Part shown: positions 38,206 to 46,441 of the stretch, one piece after another
Position numbering within the stretch: position 1 is the stretch's first letter
How the letters are laid out: each line of letters opens with the position of its first letter
Source: Desulforamulus aquiferis
Lineage (GTDB): Bacteria; Bacillota; Desulfotomaculia; Desulfotomaculales; Desulfotomaculaceae
NCBI GenBank assembly: GCA_004143605.1
Contig: AWVY01000045.1
Location: forward strand, 1 to 55,362
Direction of reading: 5' to 3'
DNA: 55,362 bases
Notes under the pieces: model-generated
What the model was told of the DNA's origin: nothing
Seen by the model: only the letters and a program-made list of their open reading frames with translations
Databases searched by the model: none
Position numbers and translations under genes: made by a program

Positions 38206-39000
38206 ATGGAAAAAGAAGTTATAATATTAAGGCCTGAAAAAAGCACTTATGTTACAAGTCGCAAACCTTTCTTTATTTCATGCAATTCTTCCACTCTTCC
38301 TGTGGGTTCCTTGTGCGCTTCAAAATTTATATCCTACCTTTATTTTGACCTATCAAGTCTTCCTTCGGATCTTATAATAAAATCTGCTTTATTAACTCTA
38401 TATTTTAAAGCTCATCCATATAAAGGAATTCCACCAAACACAATAATAATTCATCCTCTTAAGAATGCCTTCGAGGATTGTGAAACATTCTTTATTGATC
38501 GTCCCCGTAATTTTGCGGAAACTAAATTAATCGCCAATTATATTTCTGAATCACCTAAATTTGAGGTGACTATAACAGAAATTTTTAATAGGTGGTATTC
38601 TCAAACACTGCCAAACCACGGACTTTCCCTTTCTACATCTGATTTATTTAATAGCGGCTATTTAAAATTTCACAGTAGTAACATCATTGATATTTCCCAA
38701 CAACCCACCTTAACAATTGAGACATCCGTCTCCAAGGAATGTGACATAGTTAACACCGAGGAAGATTTAGAGGTTTTATCAATGAATAGCTATAGCAGCA
38801 CCAGGGAGGTTTGGTGTTTCTCAGTTTTTAGTTTTATAGTGAAAAATACAGGCATAAATCAAATATTACTTACAATACAGGATAGTGCCGATGGTCTAGA
38901 TTTTATTGATGAAGGACCCGAGCGTTCTTTACTTCCTGGTCAATCCGTTATTTTGGTAAATAGATTTTTTGCCCGTTATGCTCGACTAAAGGCAGATTAG
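38206..39000 (+). CDS. DNRLRE plus DUF6385-type protein
   Basis: Intact, 264 residues. Residues 1-170 look like a DNRLRE domain: LRPEKSTYV at the start, YLYFDLSSLPSDLIIKSALL in the middle, then EVTITEIFNRWYSQTLPNHG. Residues 190-264 (STREVWCFSVFSFIVKNTGI through LLPGQSVILVNRFFARYARL) resemble the DUF6385 domain and the end of the next protein. There is no signal peptide or membrane segment. It is the first gene of the group with three glycosyltransferases and may be a surface or spore-coat structural protein; that role is inferred. Confidence 0.7.
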   Translation: MEKEVIILRPEKSTYVTSRKPFFISCNSSTLPVGSLCASKFISYLYFDLSSLPSDLIIKSALLTLYFKAHPYKGIPPNTIIIHPLKNAFEDCETFFIDRPRNFAETKLIANYISESPKFEVTITEIFNRWYSQTLPNHGLSLSTSDLFNSGYLKFHSSNIIDISQQPTLTIETSVSKECDIVNTEEDLEVLSMNSYSSTREVWCFSVFSFIVKNTGINQILLTIQDSADGLDFIDEGPERSLLPGQSVILVNRFFARYARLKAD

Positions 39001-39081
39001 CTCCCGGTGAAAGTGCTACTGGTATAATAAAGATATTCCTGCAGGGAAGGATTACCTAAGTGGCAATTTTTTACATGGCAA

Positions 39082-39103
39082 CATATGTTAATGATAAAGG
39101 AGG
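39082..39103 (+). promoter_or_regulatory. Ribosome binding site and possible mother-cell -10 motif before the DUF6385 gene
   Basis: AAAGGAGG (39096-39103) is a near-perfect Shine-Dalgarno. CATATGTTA (39082-39090) fits the CATAnnnTA -10 pattern of sporulation sigma factors E/K, but no good -35 is visible, so the promoter is only a suggestion. Confidence 0.3.
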
Positions 39104-39111
39104 AATAAAAG

Positions 39112-39708
39112 ATGCCTAACTTTACCGTGTTTAACTTTGACCCTGATGTTCTAAGAACCAAAATATTTGGTTCCATGGATGTTGCCATTGCCACTGATGC
39201 TGACGGAAGGCTAGAAATTGCCGGCATTTCTGATTCTATTACTGTTACTGCCGCTGATTTAGATATCCGGGACCTCTGTGCCGATAACGACAACGTTTTG
39301 GTATTTGGTTTCGATGGTTCTGATGTCCAACCTATTAGAACCGATGATGAGGGAAGACTAGAGGTAATATCTAACATCACCCCTACTTACACTGAGGATG
39401 AAGAGGCAGCTGTTACCACAGATGATGACTTCACCGGCCTTGCTTACGTTGACACCTCCACCCAGGTTATGTATACCTACTTTGTTTATAATACTGGTGC
39501 CAACTCTGCAGACGTTAGATTAGATGTGAGCCCAACGGGTGAGGATGAGGTATTCTATATCGATGTAGCCGCCCGAACCCTTGCTTCTGGTGCCACCGAC
39601 ACCTTTGTGGCCAAAACATTTTTGAGATATACTAGACTGTCCTACAGATCAACCGCTCCGACTGAGCCAACAACCCTGGATATTTATTTTCAATCTCAAT
39701 CAAATTAA
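39112..39708 (+). CDS. DUF6385-type protein with internal repeats
   Basis: Intact, 198 residues, no signal peptide. Residues 20-95 contain two related units, IATDADGRLEIAGISDS and IRTDDEGRLEVISNITP. Residues 100-198 form a DUF6385-like beta domain (YVDTSTQVMYTYFVYNTGAN to DTFVAKTFLRYTRLSYRS). The product is acidic and rich in D, T, S and V with very few K. The strong Shine-Dalgarno suggests high expression. With the preceding gene it is a candidate substrate for the adjacent glycosyltransferases. Confidence 0.72.
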   Translation: MPNFTVFNFDPDVLRTKIFGSMDVAIATDADGRLEIAGISDSITVTAADLDIRDLCADNDNVLVFGFDGSDVQPIRTDDEGRLEVISNITPTYTEDEEAAVTTDDDFTGLAYVDTSTQVMYTYFVYNTGANSADVRLDVSPTGEDEVFYIDVAARTLASGATDTFVAKTFLRYTRLSYRSTAPTEPTTLDIYFQSQSN

Positions 39709-39763
39709 TGCGGCCTAACATATTATTTCCTCGTTAACATGTGAATATCCGCAAGCATAGGAT

Positions 39764-39797
39764 AACCTGAGGCATTAGTTCTCAGGTTTATTCTTTA
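39764..39797 (+). terminator. Terminator after the DUF6385 gene
   Basis: AACCTGAG (39764-39771) and CTCAGGTT (39781-39788), then TATTCTTTAT. It separates the structural genes from the glycosyltransferase genes and may let the former be made in excess. Confidence 0.75.
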
Positions 39798-39815
39798 TGA
39801 AAATGGGTGAGTTGA

Positions 39816-41518
39816 GTGAAGGATACTCAGAAGCTTAGTCTTTGCATGATCGTTAGAAATGAGGCGGCAAACTTAGCAAGGTGCTTAGCCGGTGTAAGGG
39901 ATTTAGTAGATGAAATAGTTATTGTGGATACTGGCTCCATAGATAACACTTTAGACATTGCCAAGGAATTTGGGGCTCAGATTTTTACCTCTGAATGGCA
40001 AGAAAATTTTAGTACTGCTAGAAACTATTCTCTGGCCCAAGCCACCGGCGATTGGATCCTATATCTTGATGGAGATGAAGAATTAATAGATGTTAACAGG
40101 GAAACTGTTGTAAACCTGTTAAACCAACCGGTGGAGGGCTATTATTTCACAATAATAAATCCAACCACAAATCAGCCTGGTGGTCAAAGTATCCGGCACG
40201 TCAATCTTCGCCTGTTTAGAAATAATCCCAAATACCGATTTTCAGGTGCCATTCACGAGCAAATAATTCCTTCTATACTAGCCGCCAAGCCCCAAGCCAA
40301 GCTAATAAATTCAAAACTAAAAATATATCATCATGGTTATAAAACACACTCAATTGAAGAAAAAAACAAAAACCTACGCAACCTGAACATTATAAAAAAA
40401 CAGGTGGAAAAGGAACCTAATAACAACTTTTATCTATATAATCTCGGAGTAGCACTATACCAAACAAATGACCTAACAGGCGCCATTGATGCCTGGGAAA
40501 AACACTCGCAAATTTAGATATTTCCCTTGGCTATGCACCCACCCTATTCCGCAATTATATCATCTGCCTAAATCAAGCTAATCAACCAGGGAAGGCCTTA
40601 GAGATTATAAAAAAGGCCACTAGCTATTTCCCCAATTATACCGATTTATACTATCTTAAAGGTCAAACCTTAGAAAAACTAGGCGAATACCTAAAAGCAA
40701 GAAATTGTTACCAACTTTGTTTAGAATTAGGGAATGCGCCGGAACATTATGTGACAACCACCGGCGTAGGCAATTACCTTCCACACTATAAGCTGGGATA
40801 TTTAATGGAGCGATTGGATGAATTTGAAGAATCAGCCTACCACTATTTGCAAACCTACCTGGCAAATCCAGATTACCCCGAGGTCATGGAGAACCTCGGC
40901 CGTGTGTTATTAAAAGTATTATCAACACCACTAGATTTAAGGGAATACCTCTTGGATAACATTATTAATCCAAATCCTTCCCATTCTCTTAAATTGGCTA
41001 AAATTCTTTACTCAGCTGGTGACTACCCCGGCTGTTTATTGTATCTGGAGCAGTGTAATATGTCCATAGTTGAGGTTAGGGAGCTAAGGTTAAAAAGCTA
41101 CCTAGCCATGGGCCGGTTGGATCAGCTAGAAATAGAATTAGAAAATCAATACGGAGATTCTCCAGGGGAAAGTTCCTTCCAGTTAGGGAAATTTCTTTTT
41201 GATAATAATTATATCTTAGAGGCGGCAGACCACCTGCTAAAGGCAATGACAGCAGGAATTGAAACGGGTGAACTCTATTATATGCTTAGCTGTATCTGTT
41301 GCCAAAGGAATGTTCTTTGGGAAGCTGAGCAGCTAATACAAAGGGCTATTAATACCGAGCCTGAGAGACAAGAATATCACGAAAAAATGATTGATATTTT
41401 ACTTCAACAGACTATCGAAACTTTAATAGCAGCCATAGACATATTTCCAACTAACAACTCCTTCAAAGCTCTTCTTTCTTCACTCAGAGACATGAATCTA
41501 CAGGGGAGTAATGATTAA
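39816..41518 (+). CDS. Glycosyltransferase family 2 protein with TPR-like repeats, frame-shifted
   Basis: Residues 1-190 form a GT-A fold domain: SLCMIVRNEAANLARCLAGV, IVDTGSIDNTLDIA, the DxD motif LYLDGDEE and a conserved GAIHEQI. A long TPR-like helical region follows (YNLGVALYQTNDLTGAIDAW, HYKLGYLMERLDEFEESAYH). The frame shifts near 40507 (AWEKTLANLDISLGYAP when joined). About 568 residues. The GTG start at 39816 has only a weak ribosome binding site. The layout resembles SunS-type protein glycosyltransferases. The end overlaps the next gene by eight bases. Confidence 0.85.
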
Positions 41519-43939
41519 AATGGTGAGTATCAGTTTATGTTTAATTGTTAAAAATGAAGAAGAGAATCTGCCTAGATGTCTCTCAAGCATTAAGGATTAT
41601 ATAGACGAAATCATCATTGTTGATACAGGCTCGGAGGATAATACCATAGAAATTGCCCTTTCGTTCGGAGCCCGTGTTATCGAAGAAGCCTGGCAAAATA
41701 ATTTCAGTCATGCTAGAAATGTCGGACTATGCCAGGCCAAGGGGGAATGGATACTCTTCCTGGACGCAGATGAAGAAGTTATGCCGAATAATTTAGGGCA
41801 ACTAAGGGATCTCCCTTCTCAAACTGCAGATGGCTTCTTCATACAAATCCTCAATATAGACGATAAAGGAAACACCATCAAGCAGTCAGCCCTCCGTTTA
41901 TTTCGAAACAATCCCTTGCACAGATTTAGAGGTTCAATTCATGAGCAAATCATAGACTCTATTTTAGAGCATAATCCAGAGGCTCAATTTCAACACCTTG
42001 ATCTTATTGTTAAACACACCGGCTACCAGGGCAAGTCAATTACACAAAAGGATAAGATTCAAAGAAATCTTAATATTTTAAATTGCGAGTTTGAGCAGGG
42101 AAACCAAAGCCCCTTTTTACTTTTTAACTTAGCCACCGAATACCTACGTTCAGGTGATTTTCCCAAGGCTCTTCATTTTTATGACCTTGCCGAACCACAG
42201 CTTGAGCCCTGGGTTAGTTATAGTCATCTGTTAGGCAAGAAAAAAATACAGTGTTTAATACTGCTGGAGGATTACCAAAGTGCCCTAGAGGTAACAAATG
42301 AATACTTGCATTTATATCCGGACTACACAGATTTATTGTTTCTCAAGGCATCTATTTACTATCATAAAAAGGATTTTATAAATTCACTTCAAACCTTTCG
42401 GGAATGCCTTAAGCTCGGTGAAGCTCCCGGAAGCTATGTTTCAGAGGAGGGGGTCGGCTCCTTTAAAGCCGAAAGGTCAATCAATCGTATTCTTGAGCTA
42501 TTAAAACAAAGTGATATTCCTGAAAAAAGGGCAGACCTAAGCCTATGCTTGATAGTCAAAAACGAACAAAAAAATATTGCCCGGTGCATAAAGAGCGCCA
42601 AGGGAGTGGCAGACGAGATCATTGTGGTTGATACAGGTTCCCAGGATCATACAGCTACCCTTGCCCGCAAACTTGGGGCAAGGGTCTATAACTTCGACTG
42701 GTCAGGAAATTTTGCAGAGGCGAGAAATTTTTCCCTGGCAATGGCCAGGAGTGAATGGGTATTAATCCTGGATGCTGATGAAACCCTGCGCCTTGAAGAA
42801 CATAAACAAATTCGGGATATCATTAACAAAGCTGGCGATACCCAAGGCTTTTATCTTAAGCTAATTAATTATTTTGGCACTGTAGATCCCGATGATTATG
42901 TGGTAGACGCCGTATGTCGATTATTTAGAAATCAACCTGAATATCAATTTGCCGGAGCCATTCACGAAAATATTTCCCAATCTATTATTGGAGCTGCCGG
43001 TTCAGCCAGCATTGTCCCTACAGAAATCCATATTGACCACTGGGGATATTTAACCAGGCCAATACTCAAAAAGAAAAATATTCGAAATACGCAAATTTTG
43101 CAGCAGGAGGTAGTAAAAAATAACGACCCCTATACCCTGTATGCTATGGGTACAGAATTTTTTCAACAAGCACAATACAAAGATGCTTCTTCCTACTATT
43201 GCGAGGCCCTCCGACAACACTGCGACGACGGAATGCTATCCGACCTATATTTTAAAACAGCCATCTGTTACTTAGAACAAGAGCAATATTATCAAGGAGT
43301 GGAAATGGTAAAGAGGGGATTGCAGCTATTTCCTGACTTCGCAAGTCTGTGGTATCTCTATGGAATGCTGGAATATCAGCAAAACAACCTGGAAAAAGCT
43401 TGTAAAATATGGCAAACAACATTAGCCACGGGTGATCCCCCCTGGCATAAATATACCTTTCCAAAGGGGATTGGCACATTCCGTACAGCTGCAGTCCTGG
43501 CAGTTTGCCTTGAAAAAATGGGGCAAAATAAGGAAGCTGAATTGCTGTTAGAACAGTTTTTAGAAAAAAGACAAGGTCTCTTATCCATTGCCCCTCCCTA
43601 CTACCGTCTATTAGAAAAAAAATATGACTCTAATAAAGCTGTAGAAATACTTATCGAGAAAATTAAACCCCTGGATTTTAGCTGTTGTTTTATCCTTGCG
43701 GATGTTTTTAATCAGTTAGGTAGACCTGTCATAAGGCAAGGGTTTATTAAATACTCCCTCGAGCTGTTGATTCAGCAGCCCCTGGAAACAGATTTTATGA
43801 AGCTGGCGGGGATGCAGCTAGGAATTATACTAAAAACTGTGCGGAAGTTATTAAAAAGTTCCCCGCTTCCATATCTACCGACTATAAAATTAAAAAAATC
43901 TCTTCTCTCTTTAACTTAGGTGTGGATCTGTCCCAATAA
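41511..43939 (+). CDS. Tandem double glycosyltransferase with TPR repeats, frame-shifted at the end
   Basis: Two GT2 domains are in one chain: residues 1-190 (SLCLIVKNEEENLPRCL, VDTGSEDNT, LFLDADEE) and 340-530 (SLCLIVKNEQKNIARCI, VDTGSQDHT, LILDADET). Each is followed by TPR-like helices, with pairs such as LFNLATEYLRSGDFPKALHF. An internal duplication is clear. The frame probably shifts near 43812, because the corrected end (NYTKNCAEVIKKFPASIS to FNLGVDLSQ, stop 43937-43939) fits the spacing to the next gene better than the open frame ending at 43919. About 809 residues. It probably adds two sugars in sequence to a protein or glycan. Confidence 0.87.
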
Positions 43940-43961
43940 ACAAAATATTTGTTAGGAAGGA

Positions 43962-46441
43962 ATGTGTGGCGTGTTAAGTGTATTAATTGCCGGGCCAGTT
44001 AGAAAACCTTCTGCCATACTAAAGGAATTTTTATGGTCCTTAGACATATTGGATAAAACTAATTTATCTGTTAGTTATGCCTTCGTAGATGATAACAATG
44101 ACCTTGAAAGTAAAGAACTTCTGAAGCAGTTTGCCTTAAATAAAGATAATATTGACATAATTCCTGCAAATGCAGATGATTTTTATCATTGCGATGAAAC
44201 AACCCATCATTGGCAAGAACATCTCATTTGGAAGGTAGCTGCTTACAAAGACAACTTATTAAAGCTGGCCTCAGAGAAAAATTTTGACTATGTCTTTATG
44301 GTTGACTCAGATTTAATCTTACATCCCAAAACCCTGGTTCATTTAGTAGGGTTAAGTAAAGATATTGTCAGTGAAGTATTTTGGACCAAGTGGGAGCCTG
44401 ATTTACCTCCACAGCCTCAGGTTTGGCTGTCTGATTCATATAGAATGTTTCATTCAACAAGAAATGAAAAATAGCTGCAGGCGAAATAATCAGGCGTAAG
44501 AAGGAATTTTTCGAAATGCTTGCCCGGCCAGGCACCTATAAGGTTGGTGGCTTAGGTGCCTGTACTTTAATGAGCAGAAATGCCCTTGCAAAGGGTGCCT
44601 CTTTTTCTGAAATATACAACTTGAGCTTTGTGGGTGAAGACCGCCATTTTTGTATCAGAGCAGTTGCCCTGGGTTTAGAACTATACGCAGATACCCATTA
44701 TGAACCATACCATATCTATCGAGAATCTGAATTAGCAGGTGTCGAGAAATATAAAGAAAGGCTCTATCCCTATTTAAAAGGTGATGATCAATTAGATAAA
44801 GGAGCTATGAACAGCATTATACCCTCAAACAAGATCACCCTGGCCATGCTGGTTAAAAATGAAGCGGCTAGGTATCTTGAAAAGGTTTTGAAACATGCTG
44901 CCCGTTATATTACACAAGCAATCATTCTAGATGATGCCAGCGATGATAATACCTGTGAGTTATGTCAAAGTATCCTTAATGGCATTCCCTTGACCATTGT
45001 ATCAAATCCAGAACCAGCCTTTGATAATGAGGTAGTGTTAAGAAAACAGCTCTGGCGTTTAGCAGCTAATACCGACCCAGATTGGATATTAATCCTGGAT
45101 GGGGACGAGATTTTTGAAGATAAGGCCCTCGAAGAATTGCCTATCCTGGCCAGCCGCAAAGATGTTGATGTATTGTATTTTCGATTATACGATATGTGGG
45201 ATGAGCTGCATTATAGGGAGGATAAATATTGGCAGGCCCACCGTCAATACCGCCCATTCATGGTGAGATATAAAAAGGGGTTCCCATATAAATGGAAGGA
45301 AACACCCCAGCATTGCGGGCGTTTCCCAATAAATATTTCAAAATTAAGTGGAGCAGCCAGTGAATTAAGGATAAAGCATCTTGGCTGGATGAAGCAGGAG
45401 GATCGCCAGGAGAAGTATAATCGGTACATGACCTTGGACCCTGAGGGTCGTTATGGTATTCTTGAACAATACTCATCAATATTAGATGAAAACCCTAATC
45501 TACTTCCCTGGCTGGAAGAGGAGGAGAAACATACCTCAGATGAAATAAAACCTCCCCCTACTGCCAGTACCAATGGAGGTGATATAATAGTCCACACTAT
45601 GCCTTTGTTTATAAAGGATAAGCATGATCTTTCATTAGCTAATTCCTGTTTCTCCAGCCTTGCCAAGTATTATCCAGATTCACTGATAGTACTCTTTAAT
45701 CAGGGCAAATTAACAAACGCAGAGCTTACCAAGTACCTACGCCAGTTCAAACTTCGTTTTCACATATTGGGGAAAGGCTCAATGGTTAGTTTAGCTCTAG
45801 CCCGGGGAACCTGTCTCAATTACCTTTGGAAATACCTGCCTGATATTAAGTATATTTCAGAAATAGCCCAGGATATGATCTTCCCCTCCCATTGGCTGGA
45901 TGAGATGATTAATTTTTTAAACACCCATCAAGACCAACCCATGGTTTGCCCAGGAATCATTAATTACCGGGGAGAACGATATCCTCAGGAATCAGATAGA
46001 TTGATCCTGGAGAATATTCCTACCAATGACTTGAACGGCATGAATGAATTTCTCTCCAGTTTATCCATTGAAAAAGAACTAGAAGGTTTTGCATATCCTG
46101 TGGTTCACAGGGCAGAGGCCCTAAAGGCTGTGGGAGGATACAATACCAGTTTTTTGAAGGGTCCCCAAGGCTTCGAGAATGACTGTTTGCTGCTTGGCTA
46201 CCGATATTATATGGGGTTAAAACATAACTGGAAACCCATCTGCTGCTTAAAAACTTATGTTTATCAAGGCTCAACGATTCTACAAACCATCCCCGGCAAT
46301 GAAGGTGAAGCAAACCTTAAGGGATTAATTCATATGTATGGACTGAAGGGAATAATGGAATTGGAGCAAATTCACCAAAACAATACTTATTATAAAGAAC
46401 TCTATGAAGAATTATTTAAACAGCTTGGTATAGAAAAATAA
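43962..46441 (+). CDS. Triple-module glycosyltransferase, frame-shifted
   Basis: Three glycosyltransferase-like modules. Module 1 (residues 1-275) has VLIAGPVRKPSAILKEFLWS, FMVDSDLILHPKTL and VGEDRHFCIRAVALGLELYA. Module 2 (about 285-520) is GT2-like, LAMLVKNEAARYLEKVL, IILDDASDDNT and LILDGDEIFED. Module 3 (540-826) has VHTMPLFIKDKHDLSLANSC and IAQDMIFPSHWLDEMINF. The frame shifts near 44470 (NEKIAAGEIIRRKKEFFEML when joined). About 826 residues. ATG 43962 sits close to AGGAAGG; GTG 43971 (MLSVLIAGPV) is equally possible. It ends the locus. Confidence 0.85.

What the first reader, a model, noticed from the sequence alone, without database searches (positions are those of the whole stretch)
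38206..46441. Putative surface or spore-coat glycoprotein system
Two intact DUF6385-type proteins, both without signal peptide and one with a very strong ribosome binding site, precede three large glycosyltransferases that carry six glycosyltransferase-like modules in total. A terminator after the structural genes would give them higher expression. Cytoplasmic synthesis fits spore-coat assembly in the mother cell, and CATATGTTA before the DUF6385 gene fits a sporulation -10. Multimodule transferases next to their own substrates point to sequential glycosylation of these proteins. I know of no experimental description of such a set.
Basis: partly seen in the sequence, partly recalled or inferred. 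Interest (0 to 1): 0.7.

Follow-up and report, generated by a model that had tools for sequence, protein, structure and literature searches.

The report
Glycosylated spore-surface protein gene cluster
This stretch of a spore-forming bacterium's genome most likely makes two linked spore-surface proteins, one rich in possible sugar-attachment sites and one shaped to bind sugars, together with the enzymes that attach the sugars, and similar sets occur in many other spore formers.

Summary
The window is from a Desulforamulus genome (72% complete, 69 contigs). Relatives carry continuous copies and the whole contig is fragmented, so assembly error is likely. The cluster is conserved: all 8 other Desulforamulus genomes searched hold two DUF6385 genes with related transferases, in two gene orders. 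Across the phylum sample, 31 of 40 DUF6385 regions carry SgtA/SunS-like transferase hits, against 0 of 20 control regions. All 54 DUF6385-positive genomes encode SpoIVA (340 of 398 overall; p=1e-4). An exact sigma-K consensus lies upstream of 22 of 118 DUF6385 genes (shuffles 0.42, other genes 20 of 703). In Bacilli the same GTd transferase often sits beside collagen-like genes, one of them BclB-related. The proteins come as a pair: type A (MPN start, Thr/Ser-rich middle, DUF6385 head) and type B (carbohydrate-binding-like domain, DUF6385 head). Best reading: a mother-cell-made spore-surface glycoprotein system, analogous to Clostridioides difficile SgtA-BclA3 but with a different substrate family. 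No paper in the held library names DUF6385. Glycosylation and spore location remain inferred.

The parts
38206..39000 (+). Type B protein: DNRLRE/CBM96-like carbohydrate-binding domain plus C-terminal DUF6385; ends early near the 3' end in this assembly
   Evidence: NF033679 E=2e-18, PF19912 E=7e-13 but truncated; orthologues continue about 20 residues; the D. aeronauticus orthologue's model matches a chondroitin sulfate-binding CBM, Foldseek E=5e-8
39082..39090 (+). CATATGTTA, sigma-K-type -10 upstream of type A; the same site in G003 has a full AC-N17-CATATGTTA, here the -35 position reads GC
39096..39103 (+). Strong ribosome binding site AAAGGAGG of the type A gene
39112..39708 (+). Type A protein: MPNF start motif, middle region, C-terminal DUF6385 head; intact
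   Evidence: PF19912 E=3e-29; alignments; model with DUF6385 pLDDT about 81-95
39764..39788 (+). Terminator-like stem-loop after the DUF6385 genes
39816..41518 (+). Transferase 1 (SgtA/SunS-like GT2 domain, then TPR region), split by a frameshift near 40.5 kb
   Evidence: PF00535 E=5e-22, SunS model E=2e-28, TPR hits; open frame of 342 aa covering 40523-40822; continuous 649-698 aa relatives in congeners
41511..43919 (+). Transferase 2: two tandem GT2+TPR units, 802 aa, intact
   Evidence: PF00535 two stretches, E=1e-44; nearest solved chains GmaR E=1.6e-32 and SunS E=1.9e-22
43962..46441 (+). Transferase 3 (GTd): Anp1-like GT-A domain + GT2 domain + C-terminal GTe module; split by a frameshift near 44.47 kb
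   Evidence: GTe homologues as separate ORFs elsewhere

Best explanation
The cluster makes a glycosylated outer-surface layer of the spore. Late in sporulation the mother cell, under sigma-K, makes two proteins that share a C-terminal DUF6385 beta-sandwich head. Type A carries a Thr/Ser-rich middle, in many relatives built of repeats. Type B carries a carbohydrate-binding-like domain. In the mother-cell cytoplasm the TPR-containing GT-A enzymes (SgtA/GmaR/SunS-like) hold the type A protein, put the first sugar (probably O-GlcNAc) on threonines, and the other modules (second GT2 unit, GTd, and here GTe) lengthen the glycan step by step. The finished proteins then assemble on the forespore through the shared DUF6385 head, with type B perhaps binding the glycan. 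Shown here: gene content, conservation, linkage, enrichment in sporulators, promoter-consensus enrichment, and homology of the enzymes to protein glycosyltransferases. Inferred: the acceptor, the sugar, the order of the steps, and the spore location.
For: Two DUF6385 genes in all 8 other Desulforamulus genomes searched, beside related transferase ORFs, in two gene orders. 31 of 40 DUF6385 regions from 39 genomes carry an SgtA/SunS-like transferase hit (two of them, L140 and L159, partial); 0 of 20 SpoIVA control regions from DUF6385-positive genomes do. 54 of 54 DUF6385-positive genomes have SpoIVA versus 340 of 398 overall, p=1e-4 without correction for kinship. Exact sigma-K consensus AC-N16/17-CATANNNTA within 120 bp upstream of 22 of 118 DUF6385 genes; dinucleotide shuffles mean 0.42, maximum 3 in 200 rounds; opposite strand 2; other genes at these loci 20 of 703; genes at SpoIVA loci 0 of 261. 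Nearest solved relatives of transferase 2 are GmaR, which I recall as the Listeria flagellin O-GlcNAc transferase, and SunS. GTd sits near a collagen-like gene with no DUF6385 at 13 of 52 loci (9 of them in Bacilli); of 5 such collagen-like proteins scanned with NCBIfam, one is BclB-related, TIGR03721 210.8 bits. C. difficile SgtA (GT-A + TPR, next to bclA3) adds O-GlcNAc to threonines of BclA3 peptides in vitro (PMC7157674, passages), and bclA1-3 are sigma-K controlled (PMC3789822, passages).
Against: I found no expression, proteomic or glycan data for any DUF6385 protein. 9 of 40 DUF6385 regions have no hit to these transferase models (other GT families were not looked for), and 17 of 52 GTd loci have neither substrate type, some on short contigs. 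Only 54 of 340 SpoIVA-positive genomes have DUF6385. Leading transferase genes show a weak promoter signal: 7 of 59 at DUF6385 loci, but 5 of 59 on the opposite strand. The window's own promoter has the -10 but GC where AC is expected. The GTe module was not found in the congener regions. Type A in the window itself is short, without the Thr-rich repeats of most relatives. The Moorella spore proteome (passages) gave no support.
Confidence: 0.75

Rival explanations
1. The cluster makes a glycosylated vegetative cell-surface layer (S-layer-like or adhesin), not a spore layer.
For: DNRLRE/CBM96 domains are common in secreted surface proteins (recalled); TPR-type GT2 enzymes also modify flagellin, as I recall for GmaR.
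Against: Neither window protein shows a signal peptide on inspection; promoters of the family fit sigma-K; every DUF6385 genome of the sample has SpoIVA; one GTd relative lies beside a BclB-related exosporium gene.
Confidence: 0.1
2. The transferases build a free spore polysaccharide (a crust or exosporium glycan), and the DUF6385 proteins only bind it as lectins or scaffolds; they are not acceptors.
For: Type B N-domains of the DNRLRE/CBM96 kind look carbohydrate-binding; several GT modules stand in series.
Against: Nearest characterised relatives (GmaR, SunS; SgtA by domain make-up) act on proteins; TPR regions suit protein acceptors; type A is rich in Thr/Ser (median 26% before the head against 14% in the rest).
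Confidence: 0.12
3. In this particular strain the cluster is a decayed pseudogene set.
For: Three of five genes are broken.
Against: The whole window is similarly fragmented, SpoIVA looks split too, and completeness is 72% against 94-100% in the eight congeners.
Confidence: 0.15

Closest known systems
SgtA-BclA3 of Clostridioides difficile (PMC7157674, passages read)
   Same: GT-A + TPR transferase beside a Thr-rich repeat spore-surface protein; O-GlcNAc transfer to its peptides in vitro; sigma-K control of bclA3 (PMC3789822, passages)
   Different: One 358-aa transferase and a collagen-like substrate; here three transferase loci with six modules and non-collagen DUF6385 proteins in an A/B pair.
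GmaR (recalled as flagellin O-GlcNAc transferase) and SunS peptide S-glycosyltransferase
   Same: Catalytic GT2 fold; GmaR E=1.6e-32, SunS E=1.9e-22
   Different: Different substrates; the window's proteins score far below the SunS equivalog cut-off (99 and 136 against 350 bits)
BclA/BclB-type exosporium collagen-like glycoproteins
   Same: Repeat stalk plus C-terminal beta head (PMC11952670, passages); collagen-like genes beside the same GTd family in Bacilli
   Different: No collagen repeats and no BclA head in the window's proteins
Ena and F-ENA endospore appendages (DUF3992 by recall; DUF4183, PMC11952670, passages)
   Same: Beta-sandwich head, neck of variable length and conserved N-terminal motif; in F-ENA too the anchor protein shares the head domain; weak Foldseek matches to Ena3A, Ena2A and Ena1C
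   Different: No sequence match to those Pfam families; fold matches are weak (TM by target 0.53-0.65), ranked below PirA and XepA, and may reflect a common jelly-roll shape

Membership tests
SgtA/SunS-like GT2+TPR protein glycosyltransferase | GT2 (GT-A) catalytic domain | tested here: met
   PF00535 E=5e-22 and 1e-44; GmaR and SunS relatives
SgtA/SunS-like GT2+TPR protein glycosyltransferase | C-terminal TPR region | tested here: met
   TPR Pfam hits after each GT2 unit of transferase 2 and in the second part of transferase 1
SgtA/SunS-like GT2+TPR protein glycosyltransferase | Transfers sugar to a protein | not testable with these tools
   needs an enzyme assay
SunS equivalog (TIGR04195) | Score above the curated cut-off | tested here: not met
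   99 and 136 against 350 bits
BclA-type exosporium collagen-like glycoprotein | Collagen GXY repeats | tested here: not met
   No collagen hit in either DUF6385 protein
Sigma-K regulon | AC-N16/17-CATANNNTA promoter | tested here: inconclusive
   -10 present in the window, -35 not exact; family-wide 22 of 118 exact
Ena/F-ENA endospore appendage subunit | DUF3992 or DUF4183 domain | tested here: not met
   Pfam scan gives no such hit for the two window proteins
Ena/F-ENA endospore appendage subunit | Self-assembly into fibres | not testable with these tools
   needs microscopy or multimer modelling

The most novel reading that the evidence does not exclude
DUF6385 proteins form a new class of glycosylated endospore appendage or fibrous nap in Clostridia. 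Type A would be a head-neck-hook subunit, with the MPN motif as hook, a Thr-rich beta neck of variable length, and the DUF6385 head. Its neck would be O-glycosylated in the mother cell by a dedicated multi-enzyme line. Type B would be a lectin-like anchor or tip that shares the head and binds the glycan made by its own cluster.
Probability: 0.2. Interest if true: 0.85.

Novelty: new variant of a known kind. Interest (0 to 1): 0.62.

Why it matters
In my view the glycan-bearing surface proteins of most anaerobic spore formers are still unknown (not searched systematically). This gives a Pfam family with no described function (DUF6385) a testable role. It links the family to SgtA-type transferases and sigma-K, and suggests that one transferase family is paired with two unrelated kinds of surface protein, collagen-like ones in Bacilli and DUF6385 ones in Clostridia-type genomes. 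It also names test organisms (D. aeronauticus, D. putei) in which a multi-step glycan line, of the sort not found for C. difficile BclA3 (PMC7157674, passages), may be encoded in one cluster.

Tried and rejected
Literature: no paper in the held library (open-licence PMC only) names DUF6385. DNRLRE with glycosyltransferase and DNRLRE with spore gave nothing relevant in the listings. The D. reducens surfaceome paper (abstract, outline and passages) covers vegetative cells, and I had no locus tags to match. The Moorella spore proteome (passages) names no matching protein in what I saw. Searches for spore appendages in Desulfotomaculum and guessed locus tags led nowhere.

A sigma-70-type promoter scan of 36-48 kb found no more sites than shuffles (39 against 37.0) and was dropped. 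No sequence match of the DUF6385 alignments to solved structures. GTd's N-domain resembles procollagen galactosyltransferase 1 only weakly (E=0.0016), so it is not used as evidence. A conserved AAC-N17-AATANNNTA element in the divergent promoters was noticed after the fact and not counted.

Not carried through: a test in Bacilli of whether DUF6385 is confined to sporulators (one search failed), the VIA structural comparison (library absent), direct comparison with SgtA itself, a search for other GT families at the 9 regions without a hit, and a check of sequencing reads for the frameshifts.

Full report
What the window is. The window is C45:1-55362 of a 3.57-Mb, 69-contig genome. Its genus contains D. 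aeronauticus and D. putei (contig lengths of G001:C11 and G005:C23 equal those of NZ_FRAR01000017.1 and NZ_FQUY01000001.1), so it is a Desulforamulus. Completeness is 72%, against 94-100% in the eight congeners searched.

The observation. Two DUF6385 genes are present. The first also carries a DNRLRE domain (NF033679 E=2e-18; the related PF24517 CBM96 only E=0.004, below its cut-off). The second has a strong ribosome binding site and CATATGTTA ending 21 bp before its start. A terminator-like hairpin follows at 39764-39788; terminator-like sites number 17 in this 12 kb against 10.5 +/- 3.5 in shuffles, so one site alone is weak evidence. Three transferase loci follow, with one, two and three GT-like modules. 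The last module (GTe) has no Pfam match but is homologous (37-48% identity) to separate ORFs beside GTd in Paenibacillus and a few other genomes; it was not found in the congener regions L029-L037. The claim of intactness fails. The first DUF6385 gene ends early, and the first and third transferases are each broken by a frameshift, while the congeners' frames run through. The rest of the window is similarly fragmented (51% covered by ORFs of 200 aa or more, against 64-89% in seven congener regions), and SpoIVA gives two weaker matches where the 4 sampled congeners give one strong one. I therefore take the breaks to be mostly assembly errors, without having tested reads.

Conservation. All eight congeners have two DUF6385 genes near each other (in G008 on two contigs; G007 has a third, weak match elsewhere); the one other family member searched, 70% complete, has none. 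In seven congeners the type A gene is divergent from a run of transferases that ends with GTd and then the type B gene (for G008 inferred from two contigs; in G006 the last two transferases share one ORF). In the window and G003 the order is type B, type A, transferases. The same content in two orders argues for selected linkage.

Wider linkage. DUF6385 occurs in 54 of 398 genomes of the phylum sample at E <= 0.001 (52 over the curated cut-off), in 32 families. I fetched 40 regions from 39 of these 54. Left out were five Desulforamulus genomes (the window's own and four examined separately), three weak or fragmentary matches (G013, G063, G157) and seven same-genus duplicates; a few same-genus pairs were kept. 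A hit to my SgtA/SunS-like or GTd models (built from the window and congeners) lies in 31 of the 40, two of them partial (L140, L159). No hit lies in 20 SpoIVA regions from DUF6385-positive genomes, four of which are only 12-14 kb long. In the other direction, of 65 named loci found with GTd, 52 cover at least 430 of 523 GTd profile positions. Of these, 22 have DUF6385 within about 10 kb, 13 have only a collagen-like gene, and 17 have neither, some on short contigs. Of the 22, 15 have exactly four transferase ORFs. The two sets overlap: L144, L152 and L167 appear to be the contigs of L045, L055 and L059 (equal contig lengths).

Link to exosporium proteins. In Paenibacillus, Sporosarcina and Brevibacillus the GTd + SgtA-like pair often lies near long GATGATG-type collagen-like genes (9 Bacilli loci). 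Five of the collagen-like proteins were scanned with NCBIfam; the Sporosarcina one is BclB-related (TIGR03721, 210.8 bits, cut-off 93.15). Collagen-like stretches also occur at 3 of the 40 DUF6385 regions (L159, L165, L166) and at none of the 20 SpoIVA regions.

Link to sporulation. All 54 DUF6385 genomes have SpoIVA (lists compared by eye), against 340 of 398 overall; hypergeometric p=1e-4, not corrected for kinship. The full sigma-K consensus (textbook form, recalled; C. difficile sigK P2 has -35 AC and -10 CATATAAT, PMC3789822 passages) lies within 120 bp upstream of 22 of 118 DUF6385 genes (131 proteins with near-identical or short upstream regions removed; start codons chosen by rule). 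Dinucleotide shuffles average 0.42 (maximum 3 in 200 rounds), the opposite strand gives 2, other genes at the same loci 20 of 703 (Fisher p=2e-9), and genes at SpoIVA loci 0 of 261. Against this, leading transferase genes show 7 of 59 with 5 of 59 on the opposite strand, and 2 of 48 where no DUF6385 is near, and the window's own site lacks the AC. G003, with the same arrangement, has the complete site.

The proteins. 131 distinct DUF6385 proteins fall into type A (55; MPN-like start, median 26% Thr+Ser before the head, 87% without cysteine) and the rest (76; 14% and 22%). The rest is a residual class that includes mis-started and truncated frames. Its N-domains include CBM96/DNRLRE (window; L145), a domain without Pfam hit with an FPDGW-type pattern in Desulfosporosinus and others, and a few with an apparent transmembrane helix (inspection). 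In most Desulforamulus type A proteins, and by their starts in many Desulfosporosinus ones, the middle is built of near-identical Thr-rich repeats of variable number; in the window and G003 it is short. The DUF6385 head is modelled as a beta sandwich (pLDDT about 81-95; the N-terminal half is unreliable). Its fold matches are weak: PirA, XepA and, at E about 1e-3, endospore appendage subunits (Ena3A, Ena2A and the entry 7a02), with Ena1C at 7e-3. Such matches can arise from the common jelly-roll shape. The type B orthologue from D. aeronauticus (pLDDT 86 from an alignment of 6) is closest to a chondroitin sulfate-binding CBM (E=5e-8, TM by target 0.77) and an alginate-binding CBM, presumably through its N-domain, since about 185-189 columns align.

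The enzymes. Transferase 2 is closest to GmaR (E=1.6e-32) and SunS (E=1.9e-22) among solved structures of natural transferases. The closest worked-out parallel is C. difficile SgtA: GT-A plus TPR, gene directly upstream of bclA3, adding beta-O-GlcNAc to threonines of BclA3 repeat peptides; enzymes that extend that glycan were not identified there (PMC7157674, passages).

Mechanism. Shown: a conserved pair of head-sharing proteins with a linked, multi-module transferase set, found only in SpoIVA-positive genomes of this sample, with sigma-K consensus enriched upstream. Inferred: type A is the acceptor, the first sugar is O-GlcNAc, GTd and GTe extend it, assembly is on the forespore surface, and type B binds glycan or anchors.

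Novelty. The general kind, O-glycosylation of a spore-surface repeat protein by a GT-A + TPR transferase coded beside it, is known. The substrate family, the A/B pairing and the conserved multi-enzyme cassette are, as far as searches show in an open-licence library, not described. I call it a new variant of a known kind.

Noticed in passing
window 1-55362: Frames appear broken throughout the contig (e.g. 35024-36263, 48118-48950, from the ORF list), and SpoIVA looks split in the same genome; annotation of this assembly should not be trusted for gene intactness.
   Followed up: partly
L062 6158-8810, L066, L068, L071, L072, L073, L076, L077, L092: In Bacilli a GTd + SgtA-like transferase set lies near collagen-like genes, including a BclB-related exosporium gene (L068): candidate exosporium glycosylation enzymes.
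   Followed up: partly
L029, L030, L032-L035, L037, L044, L049, L052, L098, L134: type A / GTa intergenic regions: A conserved divergent promoter element (ATATGCA...TGTAACTTTCCAC...AAATATTCTA) is shared by 12 aligned regions; AAC-N17-AATANNNTA-like on the type A strand and CATANNNTA on the transferase strand of most.
   Followed up: partly
L052 4759-5256, L098 3676-4350, L134 9645-10145, L150 9590-10231: A third DUF6385 form has an apparent N-terminal membrane helix (by inspection), perhaps a membrane-anchored partner.
   Followed up: no
window 43962-44474 and orthologues: The N-terminal domain of GTd shows weak similarity (E=0.0016) to procollagen galactosyltransferase 1, curious because GTd sits by collagen-like genes in Bacilli.
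   Followed up: no
G000 C54:23750-26686 and C12:94935-95885: Further SgtA-like transferases elsewhere in the same genome with no DUF6385 on those contigs; one C54 match has stops inside.
   Followed up: no
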